Assembly (NCBI RefSeq): GCF_017161405.1
Contig: NZ_CP071051.1
Span: 1,054,001 to 1,118,000 of the forward strand
Direction: 5' to 3'
Length of the DNA: 64,000 nucleotides
DNA from: Leucobacter sp. CX169
Lineage (GTDB): Bacteria; Actinomycetota; Actinomycetes; Actinomycetales; Microbacteriaceae
The notes under the pieces are model-generated. The model was given only the letters and a program-made list of their open reading frames with translations. It did not search any database and was not told the origin of the DNA. The first letter of the stretch is position 1, and every line of letters starts with the position of its first letter. A program made the position numbers and the translations under genes. Positions 3 to 61,390 of this stretch are shown piece after piece.

Positions 3-341
3 GCGCTGGGAACCGTCGCCTACCTGCTCTGCATCGCGTTGTTTGCGTTCGGCGTCGCAGGGATCCTGCGCTCGACCGCCGGCGGGATCGCGGTCGTTGC
101 CGGCGTCACCTTTGTGCTGCCGGTCGCCCTCCAGGTGCTCAGCATCTCGGGCTGGGAGTGGGTCGGCACGGTGCTGAACTACACGCCGATGGCGATCGGC
201 AACGTCCTAGCGCAGGGCCTCACCGACGTGACGGCCGAACTGTCTCCGAACTTCTGGCAGTCACTCATCGCGATGGTCGTCTGGGCCGCGGTCACCGTCA
301 TTCCGGCGGCGATCCTCTTCAACCGTCGCGACGCGAGGTAG
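3..341 (+). CDS. ABC-2-type transporter permease, C-terminal part
   Basis: The frame is open from base 3, so the gene starts left of the window; 112 C-terminal residues are visible. They contain two hydrophobic stretches near the N-terminal side and a last membrane segment (about residues 82-104) ending in a short basic tail NRRDAR, as expected for the final helix of an integral membrane protein. The small-residue-rich helices (FGVAGILRSTAGG, AIGNVLAQGL) resemble ABC-2 family export permeases. A histidine kinase/response regulator pair follows 56 bp downstream; such pairs often control neighbouring ABC exporters, so a functional link is plausible but inferred. Membrane protein is certain; the ABC-2 assignment is moderate. 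Confidence 0.6.
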   Translation, partial: ALGTVAYLLCIALFAFGVAGILRSTAGGIAVVAGVTFVLPVALQVLSISGWEWVGTVLNYTPMAIGNVLAQGLTDVTAELSPNFWQSLIAMVVWAAVTVIPAAILFNRRDAR

Positions 342-388
342 CGAGGCCACAGGCGCAGGATCCTCGCCACGGCGAGAGCGCTTACAAC

Positions 389-394
389 TAGGCT
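389..394 (+). promoter_or_regulatory. -10 hexamer TAGGCT for the histidine kinase gene
   Basis: TAGGCT ends 6 nt before the ATG at 401 (3 nt before the ATG at 398). The spacing would put the transcript start on the second ATG, giving a leaderless mRNA. No clear -35 is visible. Confidence 0.45.
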
Positions 395-397
395 GAA

Positions 398-2540: not shown

Positions 2541-2577
2541 CACGGGTAAGTTCCAGCGCGCGTATGCGCCAAGGCAA

Positions 2578-2583
2578 TATGCT
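2578..2583 (+). promoter_or_regulatory. -10 hexamer TATGCT, leaderless coaD
   Basis: TATGCT lies exactly 6 nt before the coaD ATG (2590), so transcription probably starts at or next to the start codon. No Shine-Dalgarno sequence is visible upstream, consistent with a leaderless mRNA. Confidence 0.5.
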
Positions 2584-2589
2584 CGACCT

Positions 2590-3084
2590 ATGAGCAAAGT
2601 TGCAGTCGTCCCGGGTTCATTCGATCCGGTGACACTTGGCCATCTTGACGTGATCCGTCGCGCAGCCACCATCTTCGATGAGGTGCACGTGCTGGTGGTG
2701 CATAACCCCGGCAAGAGCGCGATGCTGCCGATCGCCGAGCGCGTGAACCTGATTCAGCGTTCCCTCGAAGACGATCCGACGATGCCGAAGAACGTCACCG
2801 TGGCGTCATGGTCGATGGGCCTGCTGGTCGACTACTGCCTCGAGGTCGGCGCTTCGGTGCTCGTTAAGGGCATTCGCTCGCAGATCGACGTCGCCTACGA
2901 AACGCCGATGGTGCTGATGAACCGCAGCCTCGCGAACATCGAGACGGTGTTCCTGCTTCCGGATCCTGCCCACGCGCACGTTTCGAGCTCGCTCGTGCGC
3001 CAGGTGGCGGAGTTGGGCGGCGACGTGAGCCCATACGTCCCCGAGCGCGTTGCGCGCTTCCTCGACACCACGCGGCCGGCCTGA
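2590..3084 (+). CDS. coaD: Phosphopantetheine adenylyltransferase
   Basis: Transfers AMP from ATP to 4'-phosphopantetheine, giving dephospho-CoA, the penultimate step of CoA synthesis in the cytosol. 164 aa, the usual length. The nucleotidyltransferase signature is intact: [15 protein letters not shown] near the N-terminus (GSFDP and TLGH, the ATP-binding H/T motif), VKGIRS in the middle, and the C-terminal [16 protein letters not shown] (the ISSS-like ATP motif) followed by VPERV. The start fits the conserved N-terminus and the -10 hexamer 6 nt upstream. The next gene starts 5 nt after its stop and is probably co-transcribed. Confidence 0.97.
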
Positions 3085-3089
3085 ACCGC

Positions 3090-4031: not shown

Positions 4032-4041
4032 CTGAGTCGGG

Positions 4042-4047
4042 TACGCT
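4042..4047 (+). promoter_or_regulatory. -10 hexamer TACGCT, leaderless yceD
   Basis: TACGCT is 6 nt before the GTG start at 4054, the same spacing as at several other genes of this window. It would give a leaderless yceD-rpmF-rnc-mutM transcript. Confidence 0.5.
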
Positions 4048-4053
4048 GGACCG

Positions 4054-4605: not shown

Positions 4606-4618
4606 GAAAGAGAGAACC

Positions 4619-4822: not shown

Positions 4823-4826
4823 TTCG

Positions 4827-5585: not shown

Positions 5586-5587
5586 AC

Positions 5588-6526
5588 ATGCCCGAACTTC
5601 CCGAGGTCGAGGTGGTGCGCGCTGGGCTTGCCCCGGCCGTCACCGGTGCCCGGGTCGTCGCAGCGCAGGTGCTCGACGCGCGAGCGCTGAAGCGCCACGT
5701 GCCGCTTGCGGGTGACGACGGGCTCGGGGGTCACGGTGTAACGCTCAGTGCGGACGCTGCTTCCTTGCGCGTCGCCGACTTCGAGCGTCGGGTGACCGGG
5801 CTCACGCTCCAGGCCCCGCTGAGGCGTGGCAAGTTCATGTGGATCCCTGTCCTGGGCGGCTCTGGCGAGGGTGAACAGGCGCTGCTTGCCCACCTCGGGA
5901 TGAGCGGGCAGATGCTGTTGCGCTCGAACGACGCCGCGGACGACCGTCACGTGCGTATTCGCCTGTGGATTGAGCACCCCGAGCACGGCGAGCTGCGCCT
6001 AGACTTCGCTGACCAGCGGCTGTTTGGCTCGCTGGCGCTCGACGGGCTGGTCGTTGACGGGGCAGGATCCGTGCCAGCGCAGGCCGCGCATATCGCTCGT
6101 GACCCGCTCGACCCGTTCTTCGATGACGCCGCGTTCGTGGCGGCCCTGCGGTCTCGGTCGCGCGCCGTGAAGCAGCTGATCCTCGACCAGTCGCTCGTGA
6201 GCGGCGTCGGAAACATCTACGCGGATGAGGCCCTCTGGCGCGCGCGCCTGCACCCCGAGTCCGCCGGTTCGTCGCTGAGCGAGCGGAAGGCCGTCGAGCT
6301 GCTCTCACACCTGCGCGAGGTGTTCTCGAAGGCGCTCGCGGAGGGCGGCACGAGCTTCGACGAGCAGTACGTGAATGTGAATGGGCAGGCGGGGTACTTC
6401 GCCCACTCGCTGAACGCGTACGGACGCGGGGGAGAGCCGTGCCCCAGGTGCGGCGAGCCGATCAAGCGGGTGCCGTTTGGTGGGCGTTCGAGTCACTTCT
6501 GCCCGCGGTGCCAGAGGCGTCGATAG
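5588..6526 (+). CDS. mutM: Formamidopyrimidine-DNA glycosylase (Fpg/MutM)
   Basis: Bifunctional base-excision enzyme that removes 8-oxoguanine and FaPy lesions and nicks the abasic site. 312 aa, slightly longer than usual. The mature N-terminus PELPEVEVVRAGL supplies the catalytic Pro1 and Glu2; RRGKFMW carries the conserved Lys; SGVGNIYADEALWRARLHP is the helix-two-turns-helix; the C-terminal zinc finger CPRCG ... FCPRCQ is intact (four Cys). It immediately follows rnc, the standard actinobacterial order; in many relatives smc follows directly, but here about 7.5 kb of other genes intervene. Nei-type glycosylases are excluded by the N-terminus. Confidence 0.96.
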   Translation: MPELPEVEVVRAGLAPAVTGARVVAAQVLDARALKRHVPLAGDDGLGGHGVTLSADAASLRVADFERRVTGLTLQAPLRRGKFMWIPVLGGSGEGEQALLAHLGMSGQMLLRSNDAADDRHVRIRLWIEHPEHGELRLDFADQRLFGSLALDGLVVDGAGSVPAQAAHIARDPLDPFFDDAAFVAALRSRSRAVKQLILDQSLVSGVGNIYADEALWRARLHPESAGSSLSERKAVELLSHLREVFSKALAEGGTSFDEQYVNVNGQAGYFAHSLNAYGRGGEPCPRCGEPIKRVPFGGRSSHFCPRCQRRR

Positions 6527-9785: not shown

Positions 9786-10894
9786 ATGGACACGAGGGCC
9801 TCGATGACAGGCTCGCACAATTTCGTCGAGAGTGGCCCAGGTCAGTAGGTTGGGCCGAGGTTCGAGCCGCCGATCCAAAGGTCTTTCGCTCGGCCGCGCA
9901 GGGCGCCGCACTGCTCGTTCCCGCCGTCGCCTCGACACTCCTCTTCACCAGCCTGTCGTTTGAGTTCCCGGTCGTAATCCAGCTACCGAGCTGGTTGATC
10001 GGGATTCACGGGTTCCTCACCGTCGTGCTCCTGTGGCTCTCGATCGGGCTCTGGATCTGGGCCTTCATCTTGCTCTCGCTTCCGGGCGACGCTCGGCGCG
10101 GCATCGCGATCGCGCGCTTCGCAAAGGAACGCGACCTCAGGTACTCCCGGTTCGGGTTTGCCCCCGAACGCATCGGGATCCTGCTCGCGGAGGGGCGAAC
10201 TCCCGCGCCGCCGCGTCCCGCCCGCCTGGTCGAGGCTGGCCAGGGAAACCCGTCGCTGTTCCGCGCGGGCTTCGCGCTGTGGGAGAGCGCGAACAGCAGG
10301 ATCCCGCCGCTACAGATTGCAATCGCCAGCTATAGCGGGGGCAAGAATGACCCGAAGGGGCCGCGCAACGGGTTTCGCTACATGGAGTTGGCCCTGCCGC
10401 GCCGTTTGCCGCACCTTATGATCGATGCCCGCGGAAACGGAAGCCTTCGACAGATGCTGCCGGGAACCCAGCGCCTGTCACTCGAGGGTGACTTCGACCG
10501 CTACTTCTCGGTGTACGTGCCGAGCGGGTACGAGCGGGACGCGCTCGAGCTGCTCACCCCGGACGTCATGGCGTGCCTCATCGACCACGGGAGGCGATGG
10601 GACGTGGAGATCGTTGACGATCGGCTGATTGTCGCGTCGCGGCGATTCCGGCGGGCATCTGACCGCGCCGAGTACACTGCGATGCTCTACTTCTCGGAGC
10701 TGTTCGGGGAGGAACTCGGCCACCAGGCCGACACGTACTCGGACCCGCGTGCGGCGCGCCCCCGCTCGCAGGTCGCGGCCGCGGGCACCCGGCTGAAGCG
10801 GCGTTCTACGGTGTGGGCGACGGCCGTGTTTGTGGGCATGGTCGGGCTCATGCTCCTGTTCCCGCACGTGCTGGGCTGGTTTCTCGACCGCTGA
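9782..10894 (+). CDS. Membrane protein of unknown function (DUF3137-like)
   Basis: 370 aa. Two membrane helices near residues 40-62 and 72-100 (GFLTVVLLWLSIGLWIWAF), a cytosolic domain of about 230 residues, and a C-terminal helix at about 347-366 (FVGMVGLMLLFPHVLGWFL). The soluble part contains FRYMELALPRRLPHLMIDA, LEGDFDRYFSVYVPSGYERDALELLTPDVM and WDVEIVDDRLIV; this order resembles the DUF3137 group but identity is uncertain. It overlaps the upstream gene by 4 nt. No catalytic motif is visible. It ends 31 bp from the convergent Clp_N-SRPBCC gene. Confidence 0.7.
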   Translation: MNGHEGLDDRLAQFRREWPRSVGWAEVRAADPKVFRSAAQGAALLVPAVASTLLFTSLSFEFPVVIQLPSWLIGIHGFLTVVLLWLSIGLWIWAFILLSLPGDARRGIAIARFAKERDLRYSRFGFAPERIGILLAEGRTPAPPRPARLVEAGQGNPSLFRAGFALWESANSRIPPLQIAIASYSGGKNDPKGPRNGFRYMELALPRRLPHLMIDARGNGSLRQMLPGTQRLSLEGDFDRYFSVYVPSGYERDALELLTPDVMACLIDHGRRWDVEIVDDRLIVASRRFRRASDRAEYTAMLYFSELFGEELGHQADTYSDPRAARPRSQVAAAGTRLKRRSTVWATAVFVGMVGLMLLFPHVLGWFLDR

Positions 10895-12199: not shown

Positions 12200-13138
12200 C
12201 CTGGGTTGCTCGAGCTCGCCGACCTCCCGGGTGAGGTTCGCGCGGGCCCGCGCCTCCCACATCGCCTGTGCCGGTGGCGAGCGGTACACAAAGGGGCGGT
12301 CGAGATAACTGCGCAGGATCCGCGCGCGGCCCAGCCGGAAATCCTCGCTCGCGACGTGCGCGTACTCGGCTCGAACCGACGACGTGTACTCCGCGTATCG
12401 TGCGGCGGGGGAGGCGAAGATGGACAGGTCGGCGTCCAAGAGATGCACCGCTGCGGGGGGAGTCTCGGCCGGACCCGCCCCGGGGAGTGTGGCGATGATC
12501 AGCTCGCGCACCGGGACGACGGCACCCACCGGGAGCCCGAACCGTTCGAGAGCGTCCCCGGCGAACCGGGCGGACTCGGCCTCGTCCTGGTCGCCGACGC
12601 CCGAATAGACGGCGTCGTGAAACCACGCAGCGAGCAGAGTGATCGGCGTGATCGGCTCGCCCCGGGTGCGCAAGTGGTCGAGCGCGAGCAGCACCTCTTC
12701 GAGATGGCGGAGGTCGTGGTAGCTGCGGTGCGGCTCGTTCCAACGCTCGATGAGTTCAGCGCCGAGTCCCTGCCACCGTTCCGATTCGCCGACGGGGGCA
12801 TCGGGCCCGAGAGCGGGAAGCAGCGCGGCCCATTCCTCCCGCAAATAGGTCAGCCGGGCCCCTGGCCGAGCGGTCGCCCGGGCGACGTGTTTCACGCGCA
12901 GGCCCGAGTCGCGCAACACATGCACGACGTCTCGGCTGCTGACCGCCCTCGCACCCGACGCGACGGCACGATCGTAGATCGATGCGGGCACGTCGTAGTG
13001 GTCGAGATCGAAGCTGCGCCGGGGGAGACCGAGCGCCGCCGCGAACCGGTGCAACTCGGCGTAGCTCGCGTCAGAGACAAGGTGGCTCCAGATGGTGCCG
13101 TGCGCCGGCCACAGCGGTGGGTCGATGTAGATGGCCAT
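12173..13138 (-). CDS. DUF4031 domain protein with HD-type phosphohydrolase-like domain
   Basis: 321 aa. N-terminal DUF4031 module (residues 1-85): MAIYIDPPLWPAHGTIWSHL, FDLDHYDVPASIYDRAV, and VVHVLRDSGLRVKHVARA. C-terminal HD-like part (about 110-320): W(Q)GLGAELIERWNEPHRSYHD, HLEEVLLALD, LLAAWFHDAVYSG (the metal-binding HD), and LLDADLSIFASP. HD proteins of this type are metal-dependent hydrolases of unknown substrate. The start is ATG 13138 at the DUF4031 N-terminus; a GTG two codons upstream is also possible. Long inverted repeats lie in the divergent spacer upstream. Confidence 0.82.
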   Translation of the reverse strand: MAIYIDPPLWPAHGTIWSHLVSDASYAELHRFAAALGLPRRSFDLDHYDVPASIYDRAVASGARAVSSRDVVHVLRDSGLRVKHVARATARPGARLTYLREEWAALLPALGPDAPVGESERWQGLGAELIERWNEPHRSYHDLRHLEEVLLALDHLRTRGEPITPITLLAAWFHDAVYSGVGDQDEAESARFAGDALERFGLPVGAVVPVRELIIATLPGAGPAETPPAAVHLLDADLSIFASPAARYAEYTSSVRAEYAHVASEDFRLGRARILRSYLDRPFVYRSPPAQAMWEARARANLTREVGELEQPRLTSQEPST

Positions 13139-13193: not shown

Positions 13194-13207
13194 GGCAGGA
13201 TCCTGCC
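13194..13207. repeat. Perfect 14-bp copy of the iterated palindrome GGCAGGATCCTGCC
   Basis: Full palindromic copy in the spacer between divergent genes. See the finding on the repeated GCAGGATCC motif; other full copies are at 19321-19334 and 46066-46078. Confidence 0.8.
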
Positions 13208-17831: not shown

Positions 17832-18365
17832 TCAGAAGGCGCGACCGATCACCTGCCATGCGGCTTCGAGGTCGGCCCCGGGCGGGAAACGACCCGAGAG
17901 CTCAAGGCTCACCATGCCGTGCGCGGCCGCCCAGGCGGCACGAGAGCGATCGTGCGAATCTTCGGTCTCGCCAAAGAAGGCGAGCAGTTCGGACATCGCT
18001 GCCTGCTCGGCGCCTGGCACCAGGGCGGCGCGAACGAGCGGCCGCTCGGTCATGAGGCGATATCGCTGGGGGCGTTCACGCGCGAACGAGCGGTAGGCGC
18101 TGGCAAACGCGTCGAAATGTGTGGTGGGGGTGGCGAGGCTGCCGGATCCTGCTGGAGTTGCGCCATGCAACCGCACGGATAGTTCCAGGAAGCCCCGAGA
18201 AATGAGGGCGTGCTCGATATCTTGCGCGCTCGAAAAATGTTTGTACAGGCTCGGCGGCTTGATGCTCGCTGCTCGGGCAAGTGCGCCGATGCCAAAGCCT
18301 TCGAGCCCCTCGGTTTCGAGCAGGCTCTCGGCGAGGTCGAGCAGTTCCTCGCGGCGTGCGCTCAT
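17832..18365 (-). CDS. TetR/AcrR-family regulator
   Basis: 177 aa repressor-type protein. The N-terminal HTH is clear: RREELLDLAESLLETEGLEGFGIGALARAASIKPPSLYKHFSS (HTH about residues 25-45). The C-terminal ligand domain is of the TetR_C_33/WHG type, with FASAYRSFARERPQRYRLMTERPL and AAWAAAHGMVSLELSGRFPP. Start ATG overlaps the preceding DUF4260 gene by 4 nt, so the two are one operon with the regulator second. The 17-bp palindrome at the operon start is the likely operator. Inducer unknown. Confidence 0.88.
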   Translation of the reverse strand: MSARREELLDLAESLLETEGLEGFGIGALARAASIKPPSLYKHFSSAQDIEHALISRGFLELSVRLHGATPAGSGSLATPTTHFDAFASAYRSFARERPQRYRLMTERPLVRAALVPGAEQAAMSELLAFFGETEDSHDRSRAAWAAAHGMVSLELSGRFPPGADLEAAWQVIGRAF

Positions 18366-18851: not shown

Positions 18852-19739
18852 ATGGCACAGTCGAGTTCTTGGTCCCTGGGCGGCGCGTTCAAGCGGCTCT
18901 TCAACGCGAGCGAAGAGATCACCGAAGACACCTGGGACGATCTCGAGACGGCGCTCATTACCGCCGACTTCGGCCCCGACATCTCCGAGTCGATCATTGA
19001 CCAGCTGCGCGCTGACGTCGATCGCCACCGCGTGACCGACGCGCGCGAGCTGCGCCGCATGCTGCGCGAGAACCTCGAAGAACGCCTCTCGGCCTTCGAC
19101 CCGACCCTCAAGCTCACCGAGCGCCCCGCCGTCGTGCTGGTGGTCGGCGTCAATGGCGTCGGAAAGACCACCACGATCGGCAAGTTCGCCAAGTACCTCA
19201 CGACGTTCGATCGCAAGGTCATCGTCGGGGCCGCCGACACCTTCCGCGCGGCGGCGGTCGAGCAGCTCGCGACCTGGACGGAGCGCGCGGGCGTCGATCT
19301 CGTGCGGCCCCAGCAGGCCGGGCAGGATCCTGCCTCGGTGGCGTTCCAGACGGTGCAGCGGGCGCAGGAAGGCGGGTATGAGATCGCGATCATCGACACC
19401 GCCGGGCGGCTACAGACGAAGGGTGGCCTGATGGACGAGCTCACCAAGGTGCGCCGCGTCATCGAGAAGCTCGCGCCCATCTCGGAGGTGCTGCTCGTGC
19501 TCGACGCAACCACCGGCCAGAACGGGCTCGCGCAGGCGGAGGCATTTATTGAGCACGCGGGCGTGACGGGTCTCGTTTTGACCAAGCTCGACGGCTCGGC
19601 CAAGGGCGGCTTCGTGCTTGCGGTCCAGCAGCGCACCGGCCTCCCCATCAAACTCATCGGGCAGGGCGAGGGAATCAACGACCTCACCGGCTTCACCCCG
19701 CACGTCTTCGCACAGCAACTGGTGGGCGGCTCGGAATGA
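18852..19739 (+). CDS. ftsY: Signal recognition particle receptor FtsY
   Basis: Membrane-associated GTPase that receives SRP-ribosome complexes. 295 aa. N domain: residues 1-88; G domain: G1 GVNGVGKTTT (99-108), DTFRAAAVEQL (the I-box), DTAGR (G3), TKLDGSAKGG (G4) and the C-terminal GINDLTGFTPHVFAQQL. The acidic A domain of E. coli FtsY is missing; only a short N-terminal amphipathic segment (WSLGGAFKRLF) is available for membrane contact. It carries a full copy of the iterated GGCAGGATCCTGCC palindrome in the codons for Gln-Asp-Pro-Ala. It overlaps the next gene by 4 nt. Confidence 0.97.
   Translation: MAQSSSWSLGGAFKRLFNASEEITEDTWDDLETALITADFGPDISESIIDQLRADVDRHRVTDARELRRMLRENLEERLSAFDPTLKLTERPAVVLVVGVNGVGKTTTIGKFAKYLTTFDRKVIVGAADTFRAAAVEQLATWTERAGVDLVRPQQAGQDPASVAFQTVQRAQEGGYEIAIIDTAGRLQTKGGLMDELTKVRRVIEKLAPISEVLLVLDATTGQNGLAQAEAFIEHAGVTGLVLTKLDGSAKGGFVLAVQQRTGLPIKLIGQGEGINDLTGFTPHVFAQQLVGGSE
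19321..19334. repeat. Full palindromic copy of GGCAGGATCCTGCC inside ftsY
   Basis: Second perfect 14-bp copy, read as Gln-Asp-Pro-Ala with the otherwise rare CCT proline codon. Confidence 0.75.
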
Positions 19740-23127: not shown

Positions 23128-23169
23128 TCCGCGCAGGATCCGCCCGCTAGCGGGCGATCCCGGCGCGGA
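23128..23169. terminator. Bidirectional GC-rich hairpin between ffh and the YbdK-type gene
   Basis: Nested arms: TCCGCGC (23128-23134) with GCGCGGA (23163-23169), GGATC with GATCC, and a core GCCCGCTAGCGGGC palindrome (23142-23155). It overlaps the last codons of the minus-strand gene. There is no T-tract; it contains one copy of GCAGGATCC. Confidence 0.6.
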
Positions 23170-36482: not shown

Positions 36483-37145
36483 ATGGCCGCGACGCTTCGT
36501 CCGCTGAAACAGGATCCTGCCAAGGACCCGACCCTCGAACTTGAACGTCTGCGCTTTGCCGCCGGTGCCCCCATGGTCATCGGCATCGACGAGGTGGGAC
36601 GTGGTGCGATCGCGGGCCCCGTTGCCGTCGGCGTGCAGGTCGTGTTCGCGGGCACCGAGAGTTTTCCCGAGGGGCTTCGCGACTCGAAGCTGCTGAGCGA
36701 GCCGCGGCGTGACGCCCTCGCACCGCTCATCCGTGAGTGGGGCCCGGGAGCCGTCGGCTTCGGCAGTGCCGAAGAGATCGACGAGCGCGGCATCACGGCC
36801 ATGCTCGGCGAGGCCGCTCGGCGGGCGCTCCTCAAGCTGCACCAGCAGGGGGTCGCCGTGAATCGCGCCCTGATCCTGCTGGATGGCTCACACGACTGGC
36901 TGACGCCCGTGCTGCAGTCGCCGTTGACGATCGAGACCATGGTCGGCGCCGACCGCCGATGCGCGAGCGTCGCGGGTGCCTCGGTGCGCGCGAAGGTCGA
37001 GCGCGACGCGGTCATGCGCGACGCGCACGAAACGCACCCGCACTATGCCTGGCAGTCGAACAAGGGCTACGGCGCCGCCGCGCACTACGCGGGGATCGCC
37101 GAGCACGGAATTACCGAGATGCACCGGGCGAGCTGGATCAAGTAG
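36483..37145 (+). CDS. rnhB: Ribonuclease HII
   Basis: 220 aa; cuts RNA in RNA-DNA hybrids and at single misincorporated ribonucleotides. Metal site GIDEVGRGAIAGPV (Asp36, Glu37), LRDSKLLS, LILLDGSHDWL (Asp), SVAGASVRAKVERDAVM, and the C-terminal SNKGYGAAAHYAGI are all family marks. A copy of the CAGGATCCTGCC motif is inside the 5' end, read as Gln-Asp-Pro-Ala. Confidence 0.96.
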   Translation: MAATLRPLKQDPAKDPTLELERLRFAAGAPMVIGIDEVGRGAIAGPVAVGVQVVFAGTESFPEGLRDSKLLSEPRRDALAPLIREWGPGAVGFGSAEEIDERGITAMLGEAARRALLKLHQQGVAVNRALILLDGSHDWLTPVLQSPLTIETMVGADRRCASVAGASVRAKVERDAVMRDAHETHPHYAWQSNKGYGAAAHYAGIAEHGITEMHRASWIK

Positions 37146-45373: not shown

Positions 45374-46423
45374 GTGTCGCGAACCATCAAGCTTGCAGTC
45401 CTTCCCGGCGATGGGATCGGCCCCGAGGTCGTCGCTGAGGCGAACCGGGTGCTCGACGCCGTGCTCGCAGGCGGCGACGTCGTGCTCGAGCGCACCGAGT
45501 TCAAGCTCGGCGCCGAGCGCTTCCTGGCCACGGGGGAGACCCTGCCGGAAGACGAGCAAGCGGCGATCGCCACACATGATGCGATCCTCTTCGGCGCGGT
45601 CGGCGGTGTCCCGGGCGACCCGCGCCTGCGCGAGGCGAACATCGAGCGCGGCCTGCTACTGAAGCTTCGGTTCGACTTCGATCACTATGCGAACGTGCGC
45701 CCCTGCACGCTGTTCCCGGGCGTCACGTCGACGCTCGCGAACCCGGGCAACATTGACTTTGTCGTTGTGCGCGAAGGCACCGAGGGCCCGTACGTCGGCA
45801 ACGGCGGACGCCTGCGCGCCGGCACGCCGCACGAGGTGGCGAACGAGGTGTCGGTCAACACTGCGTTCGGTGTCGAGCGCATCGTCCGCTTCGCCTTCGA
45901 GACGGCCATGAACCGCCCGCGCCGCAAGCTCACCTGGGTACACAAGACCAACGTGCTGGTGCACGCGGGCGCCACCTGGCAGCGAATCGTCGGCGAGGTC
46001 GCGTCCGAGTACCCCGAGATCGCGGTCGACTACCTGCACGTTGACGCGGCGACGATCCTGATGGTGCAGGATCCTGCCCGCTTCGACGTGATCGTCACTG
46101 ATAATCTGTTTGGCGACATCCTCACTGATTTGGCCGGCGCTATCGGCGGCGGCATTGGGCTTGCGGCCTCGGGAAACATCAACCCGACGGGCGCATTCCC
46201 CAGCATGTTTGAACCGGTGCACGGTTCTGCGCCCGACATCGCGGGGCAGCAGAAGGCCGACCCGACCGCGGCTATCCTCTCCGCGGCAATCATGCTCGAA
46301 CACCTCGAACTCCCCGAGCAGGCAGAACGAATCCGTGCCGCGGTCCGATCGGACCTTGCGGCTCGCGGACCGGCCGCCCGCTCGACCAGCGAGATCGGCG
46401 CGGCCATCGCCGCCCGCATCTAG
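45374..46423 (+). CDS. leuB: 3-isopropylmalate dehydrogenase
   Basis: 349 aa NAD-dependent oxidative decarboxylase of leucine synthesis. [60 protein letters not shown], the NAD site [21 protein letters not shown], and the metal-binding [20 protein letters not shown] are canonical. GTG start with GAGGAG upstream. It leads a leuB-ilvE-FAH run. A 13-bp copy of the iterated palindrome lies at 46066-46078. Confidence 0.97.
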
Positions 46424-48666: not shown

Positions 48667-50004
48667 GTGAGCAGTTGGCGGGCGCTGCGCAGCGGCGAGT
48701 CTGTTCGGGAGCGTAGGCGGCAGCTCGAACGCGCACATGAACGCTTCCTCGATGAACGCGAGATCGCGATCGAGCCTGAGCTCGCGAGACGATTCGCCGC
48801 GCAGACTGCGATGCGCCCGGAGGTGTTCGCGTCCTGGCTACGTTCCCGCACTCGCACGATCGACCCTCATCATGCTCCTGACCGGCAGGTGCTCAGCGGC
48901 GACGAACTGCGCGAGCTGCAGCGCATCCATCCGATCGGGCTCGCGCTTCCCGTGGTGCACAGGCTGCTCCTGGACGAGGCGAAGGAGTCGGGCTTCCTCG
49001 TCGCAATCGGAGACGCGGCCGGGCGCCTGCTGTGGGTGGACGGAGACCATCAGATGCGTGCTCAGGCCGAAGACATGGGTTTCCTGCCCGGCATGGACTG
49101 GTCAGAGGAGAGCGTCGGCACGAGCGCGCCAGGAAGCGCGATCATGCTCGACCACGCCATTCAGGTGCTCGGCGCCGAGCACTACAACCGTTTCGTCCAC
49201 GAGTGGAGCTGCACCGCAGCCCCGGTGCACGACCCCATCAGCGGATCCATCATCGGTGTCATCGACGTCACCGGGGGTGACGAAGTGGCAGCTCCCCATC
49301 TGCTTCCCCTGATGGAGGCGACAATCGCCGCGGTCGAGGCTGAGCTCAAACTTGAGGCGTTTCGCTCGCAGATGGCGCGTGAGCGTGGGGCCGGCGCAAG
49401 ACGCCAGGCATCGCCCGCCCGCCGGCCCGGCGCTCGGCTGGTGGCACTCGGGAGGGATCCTGCGATCTTGGAGAGCGCGGGAACGGTGCACGAGCTCGCT
49501 GGCAGGCATGCCGAGATCTTGCTGGCGCTCGCGGTGGCGCCCGGCGGAGTGAGCGGGGCGGTGCTCGTCGAGCAGGTGTATGGCGAGGGCGGGACCGAGC
49601 AGACGCTGCGTGCCGAGATCGCGCGGCTGCGCAAGTGGCTGAGCGCCCGGGCCATTCCGCTTGAGCTGGAGTCGAGGCCGTACCGCTTGACCCAGCCACT
49701 GCGCATCGACGCGCAGCAGACGCTCGACGCGCTCGGACGCGGCGCGCACCGGCTCGCGCTCGCTGCTTATGAAGGCCCGGTGCTTCCCGGCTCGGACGCC
49801 CCGGTCGCGCTCGAGCTGCGGGGACGGGTGGACGCGGCGCTGCGCGAGTCGATGCTGCAGTCCGCGGCAGCCGATCCACTCTACGAGTACGCGCTGCGCT
49901 GGGCCACCGACGATGCGGAAGTCTGGGAGACGCTGCTGCAGGTGCTGCCGCAGCGTTCCCCGAAACGAGCGAGAGTGGTCACCCAACTGCTCGCCCTCGG
50001 ATAG
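48667..50004 (+). CDS. GAF-domain transcriptional regulator (AcoR-like N-terminus, no AAA+ domain)
   Basis: 445 aa. An AcoR-like sensory region (about 45-240) with [13 protein letters not shown], the GAF core [44 protein letters not shown] and [27 protein letters not shown]. No sigma-54 AAA+ domain follows; instead a C-terminal region (about 285-330) resembling a winged-helix/OmpR-like fold ([42 protein letters not shown]) probably binds DNA. GTG start. It precedes the aldehyde/alcohol dehydrogenase genes and is the probable activator. Confidence 0.82.
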
Positions 50005-54619: not shown

Positions 54620-54672
54620 CAGGATCCCGCCGCCCCACCCGCTTCGCGCCGGTGCGGGTAGGCGGGATCCTG
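54620..54672. terminator. Nested inverted repeat between rlmN and the convergent PLP-enzyme gene
   Basis: CAGGATCCCGCC (54620-54631) pairs with GGCGGGATCCTG (54661-54672); inside, ACCCGC pairs with GCGGGT. Ends 6 bp before the stop of the minus-strand gene. A bidirectional terminator that is built from the iterated GGATCC motif. Confidence 0.75.
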
Positions 54673-54677
54673 CGTGT

Positions 54678-55742: not shown

Positions 55743-55766
55743 GGAACCCGCGACGCATAACTAAAG

Positions 55767-55777: not shown

Positions 55778-55799
55778 TATCTTTTGCCTACGGTTCGCT

Positions 55800-55805: not shown

Positions 55806-55812
55806 GGAATGC

Positions 55813-56775
55813 ATGAGCACCGCCCGCACCCCTGACCCCCTGGGATCGATCGATTCGACCGAGCTGCGCATCCTGCACGCGCTCGCCTCGACCGGATCCC
55901 TCACCGCCGCCGCCGCGCAGCTGGGCCTCAGCCAGCCGGCGGTCAGCCAGCGCCTCAAACGCGTCGAGTCGCGGCTCGCGGTGCCGCTGATCGAGCGGCA
56001 GGGCCGCGGCATCCGGTTGACCCCGGCAGGCAGGATCCTGGCCGAGCATGGCCGCACCGTCGTTGCCGAGATCGACGCCGCGATTGCCGCGATCGAGGAC
56101 CTGCGCGGTGACCGCGGCGGCGTGCTGCGCCTCGTCGGCTTCCCGTCCGCTTCGGCCACGATCGTGCCGACCATGATGGCGCGTCTCACCGCCGAAGCGC
56201 CCGAAGTGACCTTCCAATACCGCGAGGCCGAGCCGCCCGAGGCGATCTCGATGCTGCGGGACGGCGAGGTCGACTGCGCGCTCGTCTTCGACTTCGCGGG
56301 CGAGCCGCTGCCGTCTGCGTGCGTGTTTACCCCGCTGTGGCGGGAAGAGCTCAAGCTCGTGGTGACCGACGAGCGCAGCGGCGGGGCCGAGAGCCTCGAC
56401 CTCGCGGACTTCGACGCAGACCACTGGATCGCGGGCTGCGCCAAGTGCCGCGGACACCTCATGGCGGTCGCCCGCGAAAGCGGCTTCGAGCCCGACATCA
56501 TCCAGGAAACCGACAACGTGCCGGCAATGATGGCGATGGTGGGGGCCGGCGGCGCCGTCGCCCTCGTACCCGGCCTTGGCCTTGCTGCTGCGCGCACCCT
56601 GCCCCCGGGCACCCGTGCGCTTCCGTTTTCGAAGCCCCGCTTCCGCACCATCGGCCTCGTCTCCGTCGATACCGCGAACGAGAGCCCCTCGGTGCGCCTC
56701 GCGAAGCGCCTGCTCGGCGAGATCGACGGCAGCTCATGGGGTCTGACCCCCGCGCGCCCAGCGACGCAGCGATGA
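55813..56775 (+). CDS. LysR-family regulator
   Basis: 320 aa. HTH: ELRILHALASTGSLTAAAAQLGLSQPAVSQRLKRVESRLAVPLIERQGRGIRLTPAGR (residues about 17-75); effector domain LRLVGFPSASATIVPTMMARLTAEAPEV ... WIAGCAKCRGHLMAVARESGFEPD. The CAKCRGH stretch with two Cys could sense metal or redox state (inference). Divergent from the class V PLP enzyme and coupled by ATGA to the MFS gene, both likely targets. ATG 55813 fits the TATAGT -10 spacing better than GTG 55804. Confidence 0.9.
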   Translation: MSTARTPDPLGSIDSTELRILHALASTGSLTAAAAQLGLSQPAVSQRLKRVESRLAVPLIERQGRGIRLTPAGRILAEHGRTVVAEIDAAIAAIEDLRGDRGGVLRLVGFPSASATIVPTMMARLTAEAPEVTFQYREAEPPEAISMLRDGEVDCALVFDFAGEPLPSACVFTPLWREELKLVVTDERSGGAESLDLADFDADHWIAGCAKCRGHLMAVARESGFEPDIIQETDNVPAMMAMVGAGGAVALVPGLGLAAARTLPPGTRALPFSKPRFRTIGLVSVDTANESPSVRLAKRLLGEIDGSSWGLTPARPATQR

Positions 56776-58082
56776 CCGCGGTGCACGCACGCGCGCCACG
56801 AGCTTCCGACGCTGGCGCGGCGCGGCCCGCGGCGTTCGACCAGCCCGCGCTCCAGCGCCGCACGGTCCTCGTCCTTGCCGCCGCGACCGTGCTCGGCGGG
56901 CTCGGCATCGGGGCCTCGGTCTCGGTCGGGGCGCTCCTGATCGCTTCCGTGACCGGGAACGACGCGATCTCGGGCCTGGCCTCGACCATGAATGGCGTGG
57001 GGGTCGCGCTCGCCGGCATTCCACTTGCTCGCCTCGCCGCCCGCAAGGGTCGTCGGCTCGCGCTGGCGCTCGGCAACTTCATCGCCGTGCTCGGCGCGCT
57101 CCTGGTCGTCTTTTCGGCCGTGATCGGCGCGGGCTGGCTCCTGATTCCGGGCCTCGCGATTCTCGGAGTCGCGGGCGCTGCGCAGCTCCAGTCCCGGTTT
57201 GCCGCGACCGATCTTGCGGTGCCTGGTCGCCGGGCGCGCGACCTTTCGCTCGTCGTCTGGGCGATCACCATCGGTGCCGTGGCGGGGCCAAACCTCATCG
57301 GCCCGGGGGAGTGGGTCGGCACGCTGCTGCATCTGCCCCCGCTCACCGGTATCTTCGCGTTCACCGTCGCCGCCCAGCTCGCGGCCGCCGCGATCGTCTG
57401 GTTCGGGCTTCGACCCGACCCGCTGCTCACCGCGCGTGCGCTGCCGACGGTCGTCACCGCGCCGATCCGAGTCCCACTCGAGGGTGAAACGGCGGCGGAA
57501 GCGGCCGCGGCCGAGTCGGAAGCCGCAGGATCCGCCCGCTGGCGCCAGCGCCTCGTCATCGTGGGCGTCTCGGCGGCGCACGCGGTCATGGTCTCGCTCA
57601 TGGCAATGACGCCGCTGCACCTCATGATGCACGGCGGCGACCCGTCGATCGTGGGCTTCACCATCAGCCTCCACATCGCCGGCATGTACGCGCTGTCGCC
57701 CGTTTTCGGCATCCTTGCGGGTCGGATCGGGAACGCCCCGGTCATGATCCTGGGCGGAGTGTTGCTCGCCGCGTCCGCAGTCGGCACCGCGGTCGCCGGG
57801 GACTCGCACGCGCTGGTGCAGGCGTCGCTCGTCATGCTGGGCATCGGTTGGAGCGCGGCCACGGTTGCCGGCTCTGCACTGCTCACCGAGGTGACTCCCG
57901 CCCGCGATCGCCCGCGTCGACAGGGCCAGTCCGACAGCATCATGAGTGCGGCCGGTGCCGCGGCCGGTGCCCTGTCTGGCCTGGTCTTCGCGTTCGGCGG
58001 ATTCCCGCTGCTCTCGGCGCTCGCCGGGGTGTTCATCGCGACACTGCTGGTGGTCTCCGTGAGCCTCGCGTTCCGCCGGTAG
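56772..58082 (+). CDS. MFS transporter
   Basis: 436 aa, about 12 hydrophobic segments in two halves separated by a charged linker near 215-235 ([21 protein letters not shown]). The loop between helices 2 and 3 [14 protein letters not shown] matches the G-x3-D/R-R/K-x-G-R/K-R/K MFS motif; a similar repeat is [11 protein letters not shown] in the second half. Substrate unknown. The ATG overlaps the LysR stop by 4 nt. The AGSA codons carry a GCAGGATCC motif copy. Confidence 0.9.
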
Positions 58083-58085
58083 ACT
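58080..58085 (+). promoter_or_regulatory. -10 hexamer TAGACT upstream of gltX
   Basis: TAGACT, overlapping the MFS stop codon, is 8 nt before the gltX ATG. Confidence 0.4.
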
Positions 58086-58093
58086 TGCTCGTA

Positions 58094-59614
58094 ATGTCAC
58101 ACGTAGCCACGCCCCAGTTCTCGTCCGCCACCGGAGCCGATGTTCGCGTCCGCTTCTGCCCGTCACCGACGGGCACGCCGCACGTCGGCATGGTGCGCAC
58201 CGCGCTGTTCAACTGGGCGTATGCCCGGCACACGGGTGGCACCTTCGTGTTCCGCATCGAGGACACCGATGCCGCGCGCGATAGCGAGGAGAGCTACGGC
58301 CAGATCATCGACTCGATGCGCTGGCTTGGTCTGAACTGGGACGAGGGCATCGACGCTGGCGGCGAGCACGGACCGTACCGTCAGTCGCAGCGCGGTGAGA
58401 TCTACCAGGGGGTCATCGAGCGACTGCGCGAGGCCGGCTATCTGTACGAGAGCTTCTCGACTTCGGAGGAGATCGACGCGCGCAACGAGGCGAACGGCCG
58501 TGCGAAGCAGCTCGGCTACGACAACCTCGATCGCGACCTGACGGACGAGCAGCGCGCGGCGTACCGCGCCGAGGGCCGCTCGCCCGCGCTCCGCTTCCGG
58601 GTTCCCGAGGTCGATCTCTCCTTTACTGACCTCGTGCGCGGGGACATCTCTTTCCCGGCAGGATCGACCATCGACTTCGTCGTCGTGCGCCCGAACGGCG
58701 CGCCGCTCTACACGCTGGTAAACCCGGTCGACGACGCACTGATGGGCATTACCCACGTGCTGCGCGGCGAGGACCTCCTGTCCTCCACGCCTCGCCAGGT
58801 GGCGCTGTACCACGCCCTCGTTGCGATTGGTGTGGCCAAGGAGATTCCGCTGTTCGGTCACCTGCCCTACGTCATGGGCGAGGGCAACAAGAAGCTGTCC
58901 AAGCGCGACCCCGAGTCGAACCTGCTGCACCACAAGAACCGCGGGTTCATTCCCGAGGGGCTCATCAACTACCTCTCGCTGCTTGGCTGGTCGCTCGCGC
59001 CCGACCGCGACGTCTTCTCGACTGACGAGCTGATCGCGGCCTTCGATGTGAAGGACGTAAACCCGAACCCGGCACGCTTCGACCAGAAGAAGGCCGACTC
59101 GATCAACGCCGACCACATTCGACTGCTCTCGGAGGCGGATTTTGGCGAGCGGATCCTGCCGTACCTCGCTGCAGAGTCGGTCATCCCTGCCGAGCCGAGC
59201 GCCGAGCAGCTCGAACTCATCCGTCAGGCGGTGCCGCTCGTGCAAAGCCGCGTTACGGTGTTGAGCGACGTCGTCGGCATGCTCGCGTTCCTCTTCACCC
59301 CGACCGACGAGCTTGAGTATGCCGAGGACGCGATGAAATCGCTGCCCGCGGACGCCCGCACAGTCCTGGCCGCAGGAATCGAGGCGCTCTCGGCTCTGTC
59401 CGACACCGACTGGAACACCGAGCAGATTCAGGCGGCGCTGCAGGCTGCCCTTATCGACGGTCTCGGCCTCAAGCCCCGCGTCGCCTTCGGGCCGCTGCGC
59501 GTCGCCGCCTCGGGACGCCGCGTCTCGCCGCCGCTCTTCGAGTCGTTCGAACTGCTCGGTCAGAGCGAGACCCTCGCACGCCTGCGCCGCCTTGACGGGC
59601 GCCTCGCGGAATAG
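58094..59614 (+). CDS. gltX: Glutamyl-tRNA synthetase
   Basis: 506 aa class I synthetase. HIGH-type [27 protein letters not shown] (about 24-50), [28 protein letters not shown], and the KMSKS-equivalent [11 protein letters not shown]. The C-terminal anticodon-binding helices (about 340-500) are complete. The start ATG is 11 bp after the MFS stop; the open frame further upstream overlaps MFS and has no homology. Followed after 2 nt by the flavoprotein. Confidence 0.97.
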
Positions 59615-59616
59615 CG

Positions 59617-60690
59617 ATGAGTGACATGACGATGCCAGACTCGACGACTGCCGCGCAGGCCTCACCGCGCGCGGCGCAGTCTCCCGTCGACCCGAGTGAT
59701 TTCGACTCGGGCGCCGAGTCGACCTCCGCGGTCGCGCCGATCGGCGTCGCCATCATTGGCGGCGGCCCGGCCGGGCTCTCCGCGGGCATCAACCTCGTGC
59801 GCGCGAATCGCCGCATCGCGATCATTGACAGCAACCGGCCGCGGCACTCCGCGACCCTGCAGTCGCACGGCTTTCTGACGCGGGACGGCGCGCCGCCCCT
59901 CGAGCTGCGCCGCCTCGGGCGTGAGGAGTTCGAGGCATACCCCTCGGCGATTTTCGCCCCCGCGATCGTGCGTGAGGTTACCCCGCTCACCGAGGCGGAG
60001 GCGCACGCGGTCGGGTTCCCCGACGGCATCGGCTTCCGCGTGCGCGGCAGCGGGATCCGCGGCGCGGCGGACGTCGAGTTCGTCGCCCGGCGTGTGCTCA
60101 TTACCGCCGGGCTCACCGAGCAGCTCCCCGCGCTTCCGATGATTCGTGCGTACTACGGCACGGCACTGCACAGCTGCGTCGAGTGCGACGGCTTCGAGAA
60201 GTCGGACAAGCCGCTGGCGCTGATCGGCGAGACAAGCGATGTGTTCTCGCGCGCCCTGCTGATCAGCCGGTTCAGCTCCGATCTCATCGTCTTTACCAAC
60301 GGCGCCGACACCGTCCGTCCGGAGCAAGAAGCGCAGCTAGCCCGCATCGGGATCACGGTGGAACGCCGTGCCATCGACGACATTGTCGGCGAGAAGGCCG
60401 AGATGACCGGGGTGCGCCTTGCCGATGGCACGGTGATTCCCCGTGTCGGCGGCTTCGTGCGTCCGCGATGGCAGGCACCGGTCGAGTTTCTCGGGGAGCA
60501 GGACATTGCGCGCGACGGCTGGGGCCTCATCGTGGTGGATGACCGCGGCGAGACCTCAATCCGCGGCGTGTACGCCGTCGGCGACATCGTGCCGCCCGGC
60601 CCGCAACAACTCATCATCGCGGCGGGCGGCGGCGCCCAGGTGGCGATGCGACTGAATATGGATCTGATTCGTGGCGCCCTCAACATATAA
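59617..60690 (+). CDS. NAD(P)/FAD-dependent oxidoreductase, thioredoxin-reductase-like
   Basis: 357 aa. FAD-binding GVAIIGGGPAGLSAGINLVRANRRIAIIDSN (about 46-76); NAD(P) domain PLALIGETSDVFSRALLISRFSSDLIVF; the redox-active CVECDG (Cys187, Cys190) corresponds to CxxC of thioredoxin reductase; C-terminal FAD motif RGVYAVGDIVPPGPQQLIIAAGGGAQVAMRLN. The first ~40 residues are a variable extension. GTG/ATG start 2 nt after gltX; overlaps the next gene by 20 nt. Function as thioredoxin reductase homologue or related disulphide reductase is likely, not proven. Confidence 0.88.
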   Translation: MSDMTMPDSTTAAQASPRAAQSPVDPSDFDSGAESTSAVAPIGVAIIGGGPAGLSAGINLVRANRRIAIIDSNRPRHSATLQSHGFLTRDGAPPLELRRLGREEFEAYPSAIFAPAIVREVTPLTEAEAHAVGFPDGIGFRVRGSGIRGAADVEFVARRVLITAGLTEQLPALPMIRAYYGTALHSCVECDGFEKSDKPLALIGETSDVFSRALLISRFSSDLIVFTNGADTVRPEQEAQLARIGITVERRAIDDIVGEKAEMTGVRLADGTVIPRVGGFVRPRWQAPVEFLGEQDIARDGWGLIVVDDRGETSIRGVYAVGDIVPPGPQQLIIAAGGGAQVAMRLNMDLIRGALNI

Positions 60691-61390
60691 CCCCCGCGTC
60701 GCCTCGGCCGGCGGTCTGTACGGCATTATCGTCGCGGTCTTTGTGGGGCTGCTGCTGATCTCGAACATCGTCGCGGTGAAGCTCATCGCGGTCGGTCCGC
60801 TCATTGTCGACGGCGGAGTGTTCCTGTTTCCGCTGGTCTACGTGATCGGCGACGTGCTCAGCGAGGTATACGGGATCAAGGGTGCGAGGCGCGCGATCCT
60901 GACGGCGTTTGCCCTGTCGGCGCTCGCCTCACTGACGATTTGGCTCGCCCAGATCTCTCCTGCCGCTCCCGGCTGGGAGCAGCAAGAGGCCTTCGAATCG
61001 GTGCTCGGATTCGTGCCGCGTATTGTGCTCGCAAGTCTCGGCGGGTTCCTGGCCGGTCAGTTCGTCAACAGCTGGGTGCTGGTGCGCCTGCGCGATCGCA
61101 TGGAGGGGCGGGGCCTGTGGTTCCGCCTCATCAGCTCGACCATGCTTGGCCAACTCGTCGACACCATCGTGTTCTGCACGATCGCGTTCTTCGGGGTCAT
61201 CACGGGCTGGGACTTCTTCGGCTACGTGGCACTGGGCTACGTGATCAAGTGCCTCGCCGAAGTCGTCCTGCTCCCCGTGACGACCCGCGTGATTCCGTGG
61301 GTCGTCCGGAAGGAAGCGGCTTACGCCGAGGCAGGATCCGCGAGCGAGTCCGAGCGGGCAATCATGTCGCGCGCCGCGTCGGGGGAGTAG
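60671..61390 (+). CDS. Queuosine precursor transporter (YhhQ family)
   Basis: 239 aa inner-membrane protein with six predicted helices. LLLISNIVAVKLIAVGPLIVDGGVFLFPLVYVIGDVLSEVYGIKGAR is the diagnostic YhhQ/DUF165 region; LVRLRDRMEGRGLWFRLISSTMLGQLVDTIVFCTIAFFG is also typical. Imports preQ0/preQ1 or queuine. GTG start; overlaps the flavoprotein by 20 nt. Its 3' end overlaps the minus-strand tgt by 70 nt (see finding). Confidence 0.93.
   Translation: MAPSTYNPRVASAGGLYGIIVAVFVGLLLISNIVAVKLIAVGPLIVDGGVFLFPLVYVIGDVLSEVYGIKGARRAILTAFALSALASLTIWLAQISPAAPGWEQQEAFESVLGFVPRIVLASLGGFLAGQFVNSWVLVRLRDRMEGRGLWFRLISSTMLGQLVDTIVFCTIAFFGVITGWDFFGYVALGYVIKCLAEVVLLPVTTRVIPWVVRKEAAYAEAGSASESERAIMSRAASGE

What the first reader, a model, noticed from the sequence alone, without database searches (positions are those of the whole stretch)
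61..61339. Highly iterated palindrome GCAGGATCCTGC scattered in genes and spacers
By eye I find about 41 GGATCC sites; 21 of them are flanked by TGC on the right and/or GCA on the left (GGATCC positions 61, 358, 2961, 6065, 10176, 10299, 12316, 13198, 18144, 19324, 23136, 25361, 36512, 40801, 46069, 49455, 54665, 56033, 57528, 59151, 61334). The 9-mer GCAGGATCC is expected less than once per 64 kb from base composition. Three are complete palindromes of 13-14 bp. Copies occur in all reading frames, use codons otherwise avoided here (CCT, GCA, GGA), sit in intergenic hairpins, and appear equally in both orientations (12 and 12 half-sites). This resembles cyanobacterial HIP1, not polar Chi/KOPS-like motifs. 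It could be a chromosome-organising or repair/modification target; I know of no description in Microbacteriaceae.
Basis: seen in the sequence. Interest (0 to 1): 0.9.

Follow-up and report, generated by a model that had tools for sequence, protein, structure and literature searches.

The report
Family-wide uptake-sequence-like DNA motif dialects
A short DNA word scattered hundreds of times through this actinobacterium's chromosome is real, and it turns out to be one local 'dialect' of a repeated word found across much of its bacterial family, resembling in several ways the tags that some Gram-negative bacteria use to recognise and import DNA of their own kind.

Summary
The window has 41 GGATCC, 21 with a GCA/TGC arm, 3 full palindromes. 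The 2.94-Mb chromosome has 833 GCAGGATCC and 126 GCAGGATCCTGC. Composition does not explain it: 266 vs 19.6 by third-order Markov in 864 kb; 199 vs 16 by synonymous-codon shuffling.

The palindrome is this genome's dialect only. Seven genomes of genus g5 carry variants on (C)AGGA, several asymmetric. Cryobacterium, Agromyces and others carry CGGATGCC(G); CGGATGCCG reaches 720/Mb in Microbacteriaceae against at most 69/Mb in 59 genomes of other families. In G000 copies are non-polar, neutral to transcription strand, concentrated between convergent genes, and sparse in island-like stretches.

This best matches DNA uptake sequences with dialects, as in Neisseriaceae. G000 encodes ComEC, a ComEA-like protein and PilB/PilT-type pilus ATPases. 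The pilus ATPase goes with the motif (odds ratio 7, ancestry uncorrected) but is neither necessary (Agromyces) nor sufficient. Uptake, binding and methylation were not tested; HIP1-like methylation/repair drive and a chromosome-binding protein remain live rivals.

The parts
61..69 (-). half-site GCAGGATCC (in a called gene)
355..363 (+). half-site GCAGGATCC, intergenic between co-directional genes
2961..2969 (-). half-site GCAGGATCC (in gene)
6062..6070 (+). half-site GCAGGATCC (in gene)
10176..10184 (-). half-site GCAGGATCC (in gene)
10296..10304 (+). half-site GCAGGATCC (same gene as 10176)
12313..12321 (+). half-site GCAGGATCC (in gene)
13194..13207 (.). complete 14-bp palindrome GGCAGGATCCTGCC, intergenic between divergent genes
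18144..18152 (-). half-site GCAGGATCC (in gene)
19321..19334 (.). complete 14-bp palindrome GGCAGGATCCTGCC (in gene)
23133..23141 (+). half-site GCAGGATCC, between convergent genes
25358..25366 (+). half-site GCAGGATCC (in gene)
36512..36520 (-). half-site GCAGGATCC, with CAGGATCCTG palindromic core (in gene)
40801..40809 (-). half-site GCAGGATCC (in gene)
46066..46077 (.). complete 12-bp palindrome GCAGGATCCTGC (in gene)
49455..49463 (-). half-site GCAGGATCC (in gene)
54665..54673 (-). half-site GCAGGATCC, between convergent genes
56030..56038 (+). half-site GCAGGATCC, followed by TG (in gene)
57525..57533 (+). half-site GCAGGATCC (in gene)
59151..59159 (-). half-site GCAGGATCC (in gene)
61331..61339 (+). 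half-site GCAGGATCC (in gene)

Best explanation
The motif is most likely a DNA uptake sequence (self-recognition tag for natural transformation), of which GGCAGGATCCTGCC is the dialect of this species. Proposed working: a sequence-preferring receptor on a type IV pilus (or another surface DNA receptor) binds fragments carrying the motif; PilT-driven retraction and ComEA bring the DNA to ComEC; RecA recombines it into the chromosome. Because fragments with the word are taken up more often, recombination spreads and repairs the word until it reaches roughly 0.3-1 copy per kb. Copies are tolerated at synonymous positions and at 3' ends, where inverted pairs can double as terminators. The receptor drifts, so each lineage acquires its own dialect around a shared core, GGA(T). 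SHOWN: the copies, the dialects, their placement, and the presence of some of the genes. INFERRED: the receptor, binding, uptake, recombination, and that these bacteria become competent at all.
For: (1) Abundance beyond composition and codon use. (2) Dialects with a shared core: 7 of 7 genomes of genus g5 have 235-891 GCAGGATCC, and the stretches sampled from those 7 differ in flanks around (C)AGGA; GGATGCC words in Cryobacterium and Agromyces; 57 of 90 family genomes exceed the highest CGGATGCCG density among 59 genomes of other families. (3) No replication polarity in G000: 94 leading-like to 99 lagging-like asymmetric sites, origin and terminus placed by GC skew; even forward/reverse counts in ten 20-kb stretches of G086. 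(4) Neutral to transcription strand in G000, 98/101. (5) In G000, density per kb is 2.40 between convergent, 0.81 co-directional, 0.30 divergent genes and 0.25 in genes; 18 of 68 convergent regions hold a site; some are inverted pairs in long stems, with similar pairs in G004, G151, G152. (6) Sparse in several low-GC, low-codon-score stretches: 1 and 4 per 20 kb at 1.54 and 1.56 Mb, against up to 19 elsewhere. (7) Slightly more even spacing than random in G000 and Cryobacterium; two control words are not. (8) Motif identical in the orthologue in 0.61 of 352 comparisons vs 0.34 of 635 for control words in Cryobacterium, one-off states 0.13 vs 0.29. (9) ComEC in 20 of 20; ComEA-like gene before comEC in G000; a PilB-type and an adjacent PilT-type ATPase in G000 and 11 relatives, typed as PilB and PilT in G182 and, for PilB, G004; strong motif vs PilB odds ratio 7.1, p 1e-4, 90 genomes. 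(10) Frye 2013 (PMC3630211; abstract, passages and section 'DUS counts' read): dialects with a required CTG core, inverted pairs at terminators, and overlapping dyad pairs in Simonsiella, a parallel to the palindrome here.
Against: Agromyces has a strong motif but no full-length PilB in 8 of 8 genomes; Gulosibacter (2 of 2, moderate motif) and one MAG likewise; G034 too. 19 of 60 strong-motif family genomes lack PilB and 7 PilB-positive family genomes show no strong known dialect; Amnibacterium has PilB and no GGATGCC enrichment. 27 of 59 genomes of other families have PilB at background CGGATGCCG. The association ignores shared ancestry and its threshold was set after seeing the data. ComEC is ubiquitous, so uninformative. 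No receptor or pilin was examined. The convergent enrichment is well sampled only in G000: in Cryobacterium 19 of 65 regions hold a site, but these are mostly the same few orthologous gene ends; in Agromyces 5 of 23; G086, G004 and G152 agree on 10, 4 and 4 sites, while G088, G149, G150, G151 and G153 show no excess over divergent regions. A GC-rich control palindrome, GCCGGC, is also 3.6 times denser in convergent than divergent regions, though not above its coding density. Agromyces orthologue retention is weak (0.376 vs 0.309), and one control word, CGATGCCG, reaches 0.58 in Cryobacterium and 0.49 in Agromyces. Spacing in Agromyces, G149, G151 and G153 does not differ from random. Sequence-specific uptake is, as far as I recall, not established in Gram-positives.
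Confidence: 0.52

Rival explanations
1. HIP1-type drive: a DNA methyltransferase (or other base modification) recognising part of the motif, coupled to mismatch or lesion repair, biases mutation towards the word and keeps it; the word itself may have no further function (Elhai's model for cyanobacteria).
For: The G000 dialect is a GATC-cored palindrome like HIP1 with nearly independent arms; G000 has three PF01555 methyltransferases, one of them conserved across the family and lying among housekeeping genes; Elhai 2015 (PMC4390886; abstract, section 3.4 part 1 of 2 and passages read) reports alternate HIPs, including GGGATCCC, with matching methyltransferases.
Against: The conserved methyltransferase is also in genomes with weak or no motif (G014; Nesterenkonia, Arthrobacter, Actinomyces), and is roughly 80-90% identical among g5 genomes whose dialects differ. 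PF00145 had no match in G000; other methyltransferase families were not searched. Several dialects are not palindromes and lack GATC. Single-mismatch neighbours are not generally depleted. Concentration between convergent genes is not predicted.
Confidence: 0.18
2. Chromosome-organising site: a dimeric nucleoid-associated or segregation protein binds the word every 1-3 kb to shape or mark the chromosome, and its specificity drifts between species.
For: Symmetric, additive arms in G000 (both arms 37 observed, about 30 if independent), slightly even spacing, retention in Cryobacterium orthologues, scarcity in island-like DNA, no polarity.
Against: It does not predict the concentration between convergent genes in G000 or the pilus association; several dialects are asymmetric; very different dialects within one genus would require repeated rewriting of hundreds of sites without an evident spreading mechanism.
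Confidence: 0.2
3. Chi- or KOPS-like polar recombination/segregation signal.
For: GC-rich, abundant, lineage-specific, like Chi.
Against: No replication-strand bias in G000 (94 to 99) or in ten stretches of G086; palindromic in G000. Strand totals alone do not test polarity and are not used here.
Confidence: 0.04
4. Artefact of base composition, codon bias or dispersed transposable repeats.
For: High-GC genomes show moderate enrichment of other words; CGATGCCG and CTCGGCGA are 1.5-1.8 times the synonymous-shuffle expectation. The pooled loci are partly orthologous and so not independent.
Against: 11.9-fold over synonymous shuffling for GCAGGATCC, 5-10 fold for the Cryobacterium and Agromyces words; whole-genome counts repeat it; copies share only the short word, in many frames and on both strands.
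Confidence: 0.02

Closest known systems
DNA uptake sequences (DUS) of Neisseriaceae
   Same: Hundreds to thousands of copies of a short word; species dialects around a short invariant core; copies in genes and, as inverted pairs, at terminators; overlapping dyad pairs in some species (PMC3630211, section read). ComEC and PilB/PilT-type genes in G000.
   Different: Gram-positive, high-GC actinobacteria; unrelated word; no uptake data; receptor unknown (ComP is the Neisseria receptor, PMC3868556 abstract listing); also present in Agromyces without a full-length PilB.
Uptake signal sequences (USS) of Pasteurellaceae
   Same: Abundant short word in both orientations; competence pilus (recalled).
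   Different: Different sequence and lineage; van Passel 2008 (PMC2346458, abstract read) reports a bias to gene termini that I did not see clearly in G000.
Cyanobacterial HIP1 and alternate HIPs
   Same: GATC-cored GC-rich palindrome; an alternate HIP, GGGATCCC, shares the GGATCC core (PMC4390886, passages read).
   Different: Relatives' dialects are often asymmetric and lack GATC; the word drifts by species around a core; dense between convergent genes in G000; no methyltransferase examined here tracks it.
Chi / KOPS
   Same: Abundant short word.
   Different: No replication polarity in G000.

Membership tests
DNA uptake sequence (DUS/USS) | short word far above expectation genome-wide, in both orientations | tested here: met
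DNA uptake sequence (DUS/USS) | lineage dialects around a conserved core | tested here: met
DNA uptake sequence (DUS/USS) | intergenic copies at 3' ends, inverted pairs in hairpins | tested here: met
   met in G000 (18 of 68 convergent regions). In relatives inconclusive: Cryobacterium regions are mostly repeats of the same orthologous gene ends, and five relatives show no excess
DNA uptake sequence (DUS/USS) | depleted in foreign DNA | tested here: inconclusive
   density falls with GC (Spearman 0.67) and codon score (0.51) over 44 stretches of G000; low GC alone may explain part, and islands were judged by eye
DNA uptake sequence (DUS/USS) | natural-transformation machinery encoded | tested here: met
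   ComEC 20 of 20, ComEA-like in G000 (below the NCBIfam cut-offs), PilB/PilT-type ATPases in G000; pilins not examined; Agromyces lacks full-length PilB
DNA uptake sequence (DUS/USS) | motif raises DNA binding, uptake or transformation | not testable with these tools
   needs transformation assays
DNA uptake sequence (DUS/USS) | sequence-specific surface receptor (ComP-type minor pilin) | not tested
   the pil region of G000 lies outside the stretches held; whole-genome letters exhausted
HIP | iterated word is a palindrome | tested here: inconclusive
   G000 yes; G086, G151, G152 no
HIP | cognate methyltransferase for part of the word | tested here: inconclusive
   three PF01555 genes in G000, specificity unknown; the conserved one does not track the motif
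Chi / KOPS | leading-strand polarity | tested here: not met

The most novel reading that the evidence does not exclude
A DNA-uptake-sequence system with species dialects exists in a family of Gram-positive actinobacteria (Microbacteriaceae), evolved independently of Neisseriaceae and Pasteurellaceae; its core GGA(T) is read by an unknown receptor, and in this genome the dialect has become a palindrome, suggesting dimeric recognition.
Probability: 0.48. Interest if true: 0.92.

Novelty: new variant of a known kind. Interest (0 to 1): 0.8.

Why it matters
If these are uptake sequences, sequence-specific self-recognition in transformation is not a speciality of two Gram-negative families, and a second, independent set of dialects becomes available to ask how a receptor and hundreds of genomic sites co-evolve. 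It would suggest that Cryobacterium, Agromyces and relatives are naturally transformable and tell experimenters which tag to put on transforming DNA. If they are instead methylation- or binding-driven, they are an independent, family-wide parallel to cyanobacterial HIP1, whose cause is still open, with enough species variation to test it.

Tried and rejected
Polarity (Chi, KOPS): rejected for G000; strand totals of whole genomes do not bear on it. Codon or composition artefact: rejected. A strictly asymmetric site in G000: second arms occur at least as often as independence predicts (37 vs about 30), so the site behaves as additive and symmetric there. Context-dependent repair (VSP-like, recalled) would predict a consistently depleted one-off neighbour; GCAGGACCC was low in G000 (3 vs 16.7) and G151 (1 vs 4.6), not in G086 or G153. 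The conserved methyltransferase as sole cause: rejected because it occurs in motif-poor genomes. Type IVa pilus as strict requirement: suggested, contradicted by Agromyces; kept only as a statistical association. Intragenic end bias reported for Pasteurellaceae: not clear in G000; Cryobacterium counts are uneven but come from orthologous loci. A paper recalled as testing selection and periodicity of HIP1 was not in the library.

Caveats on counts: gene calls come from a simple codon-likelihood script of mine. The 924-kb G000 set contains a 10-kb overlap (L029/L101; removed), the G153 set 5 kb (L073/L112), the G151 set 6 kb (L100/L114). Pooled named loci are centred on one gene and partly orthologous. 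The table was transcribed by hand. Control words were chosen by hand and not matched for reading frame. One search sampled 400 of 1356 Cryobacterium pairs and all 228 Agromyces pairs.


Full report
WHAT WAS CHECKED. One search confirms 41 and 21 (12 GCAGGATCC, 12 GGATCCTGC, 3 sites counted in both). The window is G000:C1:1054001-1118000 of a single 2,941,848-bp contig. On that contig GCAGGATCC occurs 422 times forward and 411 reverse; the same letters read backwards occur once. GCAGGATCCTGC occurs 126 times.

IS IT MORE THAN COMPOSITION. In 864 kb of own DNA (40 stretches of 20 kb plus the window), GCAGGATCC is the most over-represented 9-mer under a third-order Markov model (266 vs 19.6), and GCAGGATCCTGC has 74 strand-counts against 0.67. 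Within called genes, 199 copies stand against 16.2 after synonymous-codon shuffling, 98 on the gene's strand and 101 on the other, in five of six frames. Two ordinary over-represented words reach 1.5-1.8 fold in the same test, against 11.9 fold for the motif.

ANATOMY. In G000 the GATC core is strict and the flanks GCA/TGC matter; the two arms are nearly independent of each other (both arms on 37 of 576 sites, about 30 expected if independent), as expected for additive recognition of a two-fold symmetric site. Asymmetric sites show no replication bias: 94 leading-like, 99 lagging-like, with replichores set by GC skew. Density per kb between convergent genes is 2.40, between co-directional genes 0.81, between divergent genes 0.30, and 0.25 in genes; 18 of 68 convergent regions hold a site, and some of these are inverted pairs inside long stems. 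A GC-rich control palindrome, GCCGGC, is also denser in convergent than divergent regions (1.39 vs 0.39 per kb) but equals its coding density of 1.35. The least supplied 20-kb stretches (1 to 4 sites: 22 and 180 kb, 1.54, 1.56, 1.62 and 2.58 Mb) are the AT-richer ones at 60-63% GC; transposase-like proteins were recognised by eye in two of them, L102 and L103. Short gaps between sites are slightly rarer than random placement gives.

RELATIVES. Among 149 genomes including G000, GCAGGATCC exceeds 600 only in G000 and the two genomes of genus g5; the next highest is 200. All 7 of 7 g5 genomes have 235 to 891. In 398 family genomes the 12-bp palindrome is at 126 in G000, 8 to 67 in g5 and at most 4 elsewhere, with one exception at 8 in genus g15. 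Genus g15 is Leucobacter-like: the G014 methyltransferase is 92.6% identical to that of L. tardus. Twelve named Leucobacter genomes have 100-363 copies against 26-95 in ten other named genomes. Stretches from twelve relatives show different top words: GGGCGCAGGA(T/G)C in G086, CGCAGGATC in G153, CGCAGGATGCCC in G151, GCGCAGGATCGCG in G149, GCAGGATCC and GCAGGATGCC in G150, GCGCAGGAACTCG in G152, CAGGATCCG and AAGGATCCG in G004, GCGGATCC in G034, CCGGATGCCG in G009, CGGATGTCGC and CGGATGCCGC in G088, GCGGATGCGGT in G182; in G014 none stands out.

FAMILY SCALE. Named loci give ACGGATGCC 93 vs 6.4 in Cryobacterium, GCGGCATCC (the complement of GGATGCCGC) 153 vs 14.8 in Agromyces, GGAGGCC 122 vs 37 in Leifsonia; nothing comparable heads the lists of Nesterenkonia or Arthrobacter. 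Genome-wide, CGGATGCCG has median 107 and maximum 720 per Mb in 90 Microbacteriaceae (G000 included), and median 38, maximum 69 in 59 genomes of other families of the order; 57 of 90 exceed that maximum. Of 14 family genomes under 2 Mb, 13 are at 39 per Mb or less. Synonymous shuffling gives 5.1 to 9.5 fold for the Cryobacterium and Agromyces words, 6.2 in G034 and 2.3 to 4.0 in G009. Convergent/divergent densities are 3.80/0.62 in Cryobacterium and 4.18/0.49 in Agromyces, but one search shows that the Cryobacterium regions (19 of 65 with a site) are mostly the same few orthologous gene ends and the Agromyces figure rests on 5 of 23 regions. G086, G004 and G152 agree on few sites; G088, G149, G150, G151 and G153 show no excess over divergent regions. 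In 400 of 1356 Cryobacterium orthologue pairs a motif is identical in the partner in 0.61 of 352 cases against 0.34 of 635 for control words, with one-off states 0.13 against 0.29; in 228 Agromyces pairs 0.38 of 383 against 0.31 of 363. One control word, CGATGCCG, is about as well retained as the motif, and frames were not matched.

MACHINERY. ComEC is in 20 of 20 genomes, so it does not discriminate. In G000 the gene before comEC has SLBB and helix-hairpin-helix domains and matches ComEA models below their NCBIfam cut-offs. A full-length PilB-type ATPase with a PilT-type gene beside it is in G000 and 11 relatives (7 of 7 g5, G009, G088, G182, one Cryobacterium) and absent from G014, G034, two Agromyces, one Nesterenkonia and one Arthrobacter. 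The PilB of two relatives (G182, G004) matches the type IV-A PilB model at about 1e-190, just under its cut-off; the G182 neighbour matches the PilT model above its cut-off. In 50 named genomes it is present in Cryobacterium 8 of 8, Leifsonia 4 of 4 and seven others (19 in all), and absent from Leucobacter 10 of 10, Agromyces 8 of 8, Gulosibacter 2 of 2, one MAG and all 10 genomes outside Microbacteriaceae. Over 90 family genomes, 41 of 60 strong-motif and 7 of 30 weak-motif genomes have it (odds ratio 7.1, p 1e-4; 4.2, p 0.02 in genomes of 2 Mb or more). 'Strong' was defined after the fact, shared ancestry is not corrected for, and 27 of 59 genomes of other families have PilB at background motif density. 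Micrococcus luteus, another actinobacterium, transforms through Flp/Tad pili, and that paper's text does not mention pilB or pilT (PMC4322843, passages read), so a Tad route in Agromyces is possible but untested.

HOW IT PROBABLY WORKS. The joint pattern in G000 is: very many short copies, non-polar, on both strands of genes, gathered between convergent genes with hairpins, sparse in island-like DNA; and in the family, dialects around a fixed core, with retention in Cryobacterium orthologues. The known class that best combines these is the DNA uptake sequence; Frye et al. describe dialects, terminator pairs and even overlapping dyads (PMC3630211). I therefore propose biased uptake and recombination as the force that wrote the word into the genome, at confidence 0.52. 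HIP1-type methylation/repair drive (0.18) and a chromosome-binding protein (0.20) remain possible. No experiment here touches uptake, binding or methylation.

LITERATURE. No paper in the searched open-licence library joins 'highly iterated palindrome' with actinobacteria, or 'DNA uptake sequence' with actinobacteria and 'overrepresented', or Microbacteriaceae with 'overrepresented', 'motif' and 'chi'. 'GGATGCC' with Microbacteriaceae gave one Clavibacter review (listing only). A broader search with Microbacteriaceae and Leucobacter gave one paper, on Pasteurellaceae and Neisseriae, holding neither name. Subscription papers and preprints were not searchable, so absence from print is not established.

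Noticed in passing
L101:9173-10093 (G000:C1:1959173-1960093), - strand: A conserved PF01555 DNA methyltransferase lying among housekeeping genes has close relatives across Micrococcales and some Actinomyces and Bifidobacteriaceae records; its target is unknown.
   Followed up: partly
L071-L080 (genome G153): A separate dispersed repeat of about 18 bp (AAAATCCCCTTCGATTTC and variants) is strongly over-represented in these stretches and was not among the top words of the other genomes sampled.
   Followed up: no
L091-L100 (genome G151): A repeat around AAACGTGGAGTC, 9 strand-counts in 200 kb, unrelated to the motif.
   Followed up: no
L178, L211 (Gulosibacter): ACGTGAAAC/TCACGTGAA occurs 18 times (strand-counts) in 42 kb, resembling the parS site (recalled); possibly a parS cluster.
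   Followed up: no
Agromyces genomes (e.g. G472:C7:637334-638170): An ATPase matching PF00437 only over positions 5-280 at about 1e-66, with similar matches in Arthrobacter and Nesterenkonia; perhaps a different pilus or secretion system.
   Followed up: no
G000:C1:22001-42000 and 1560001-1580000 (L102, L103): Island-like stretches with transposase-like proteins (recognised by eye, no search) and additional PF01555 methyltransferases, poor in the motif.
   Followed up: partly
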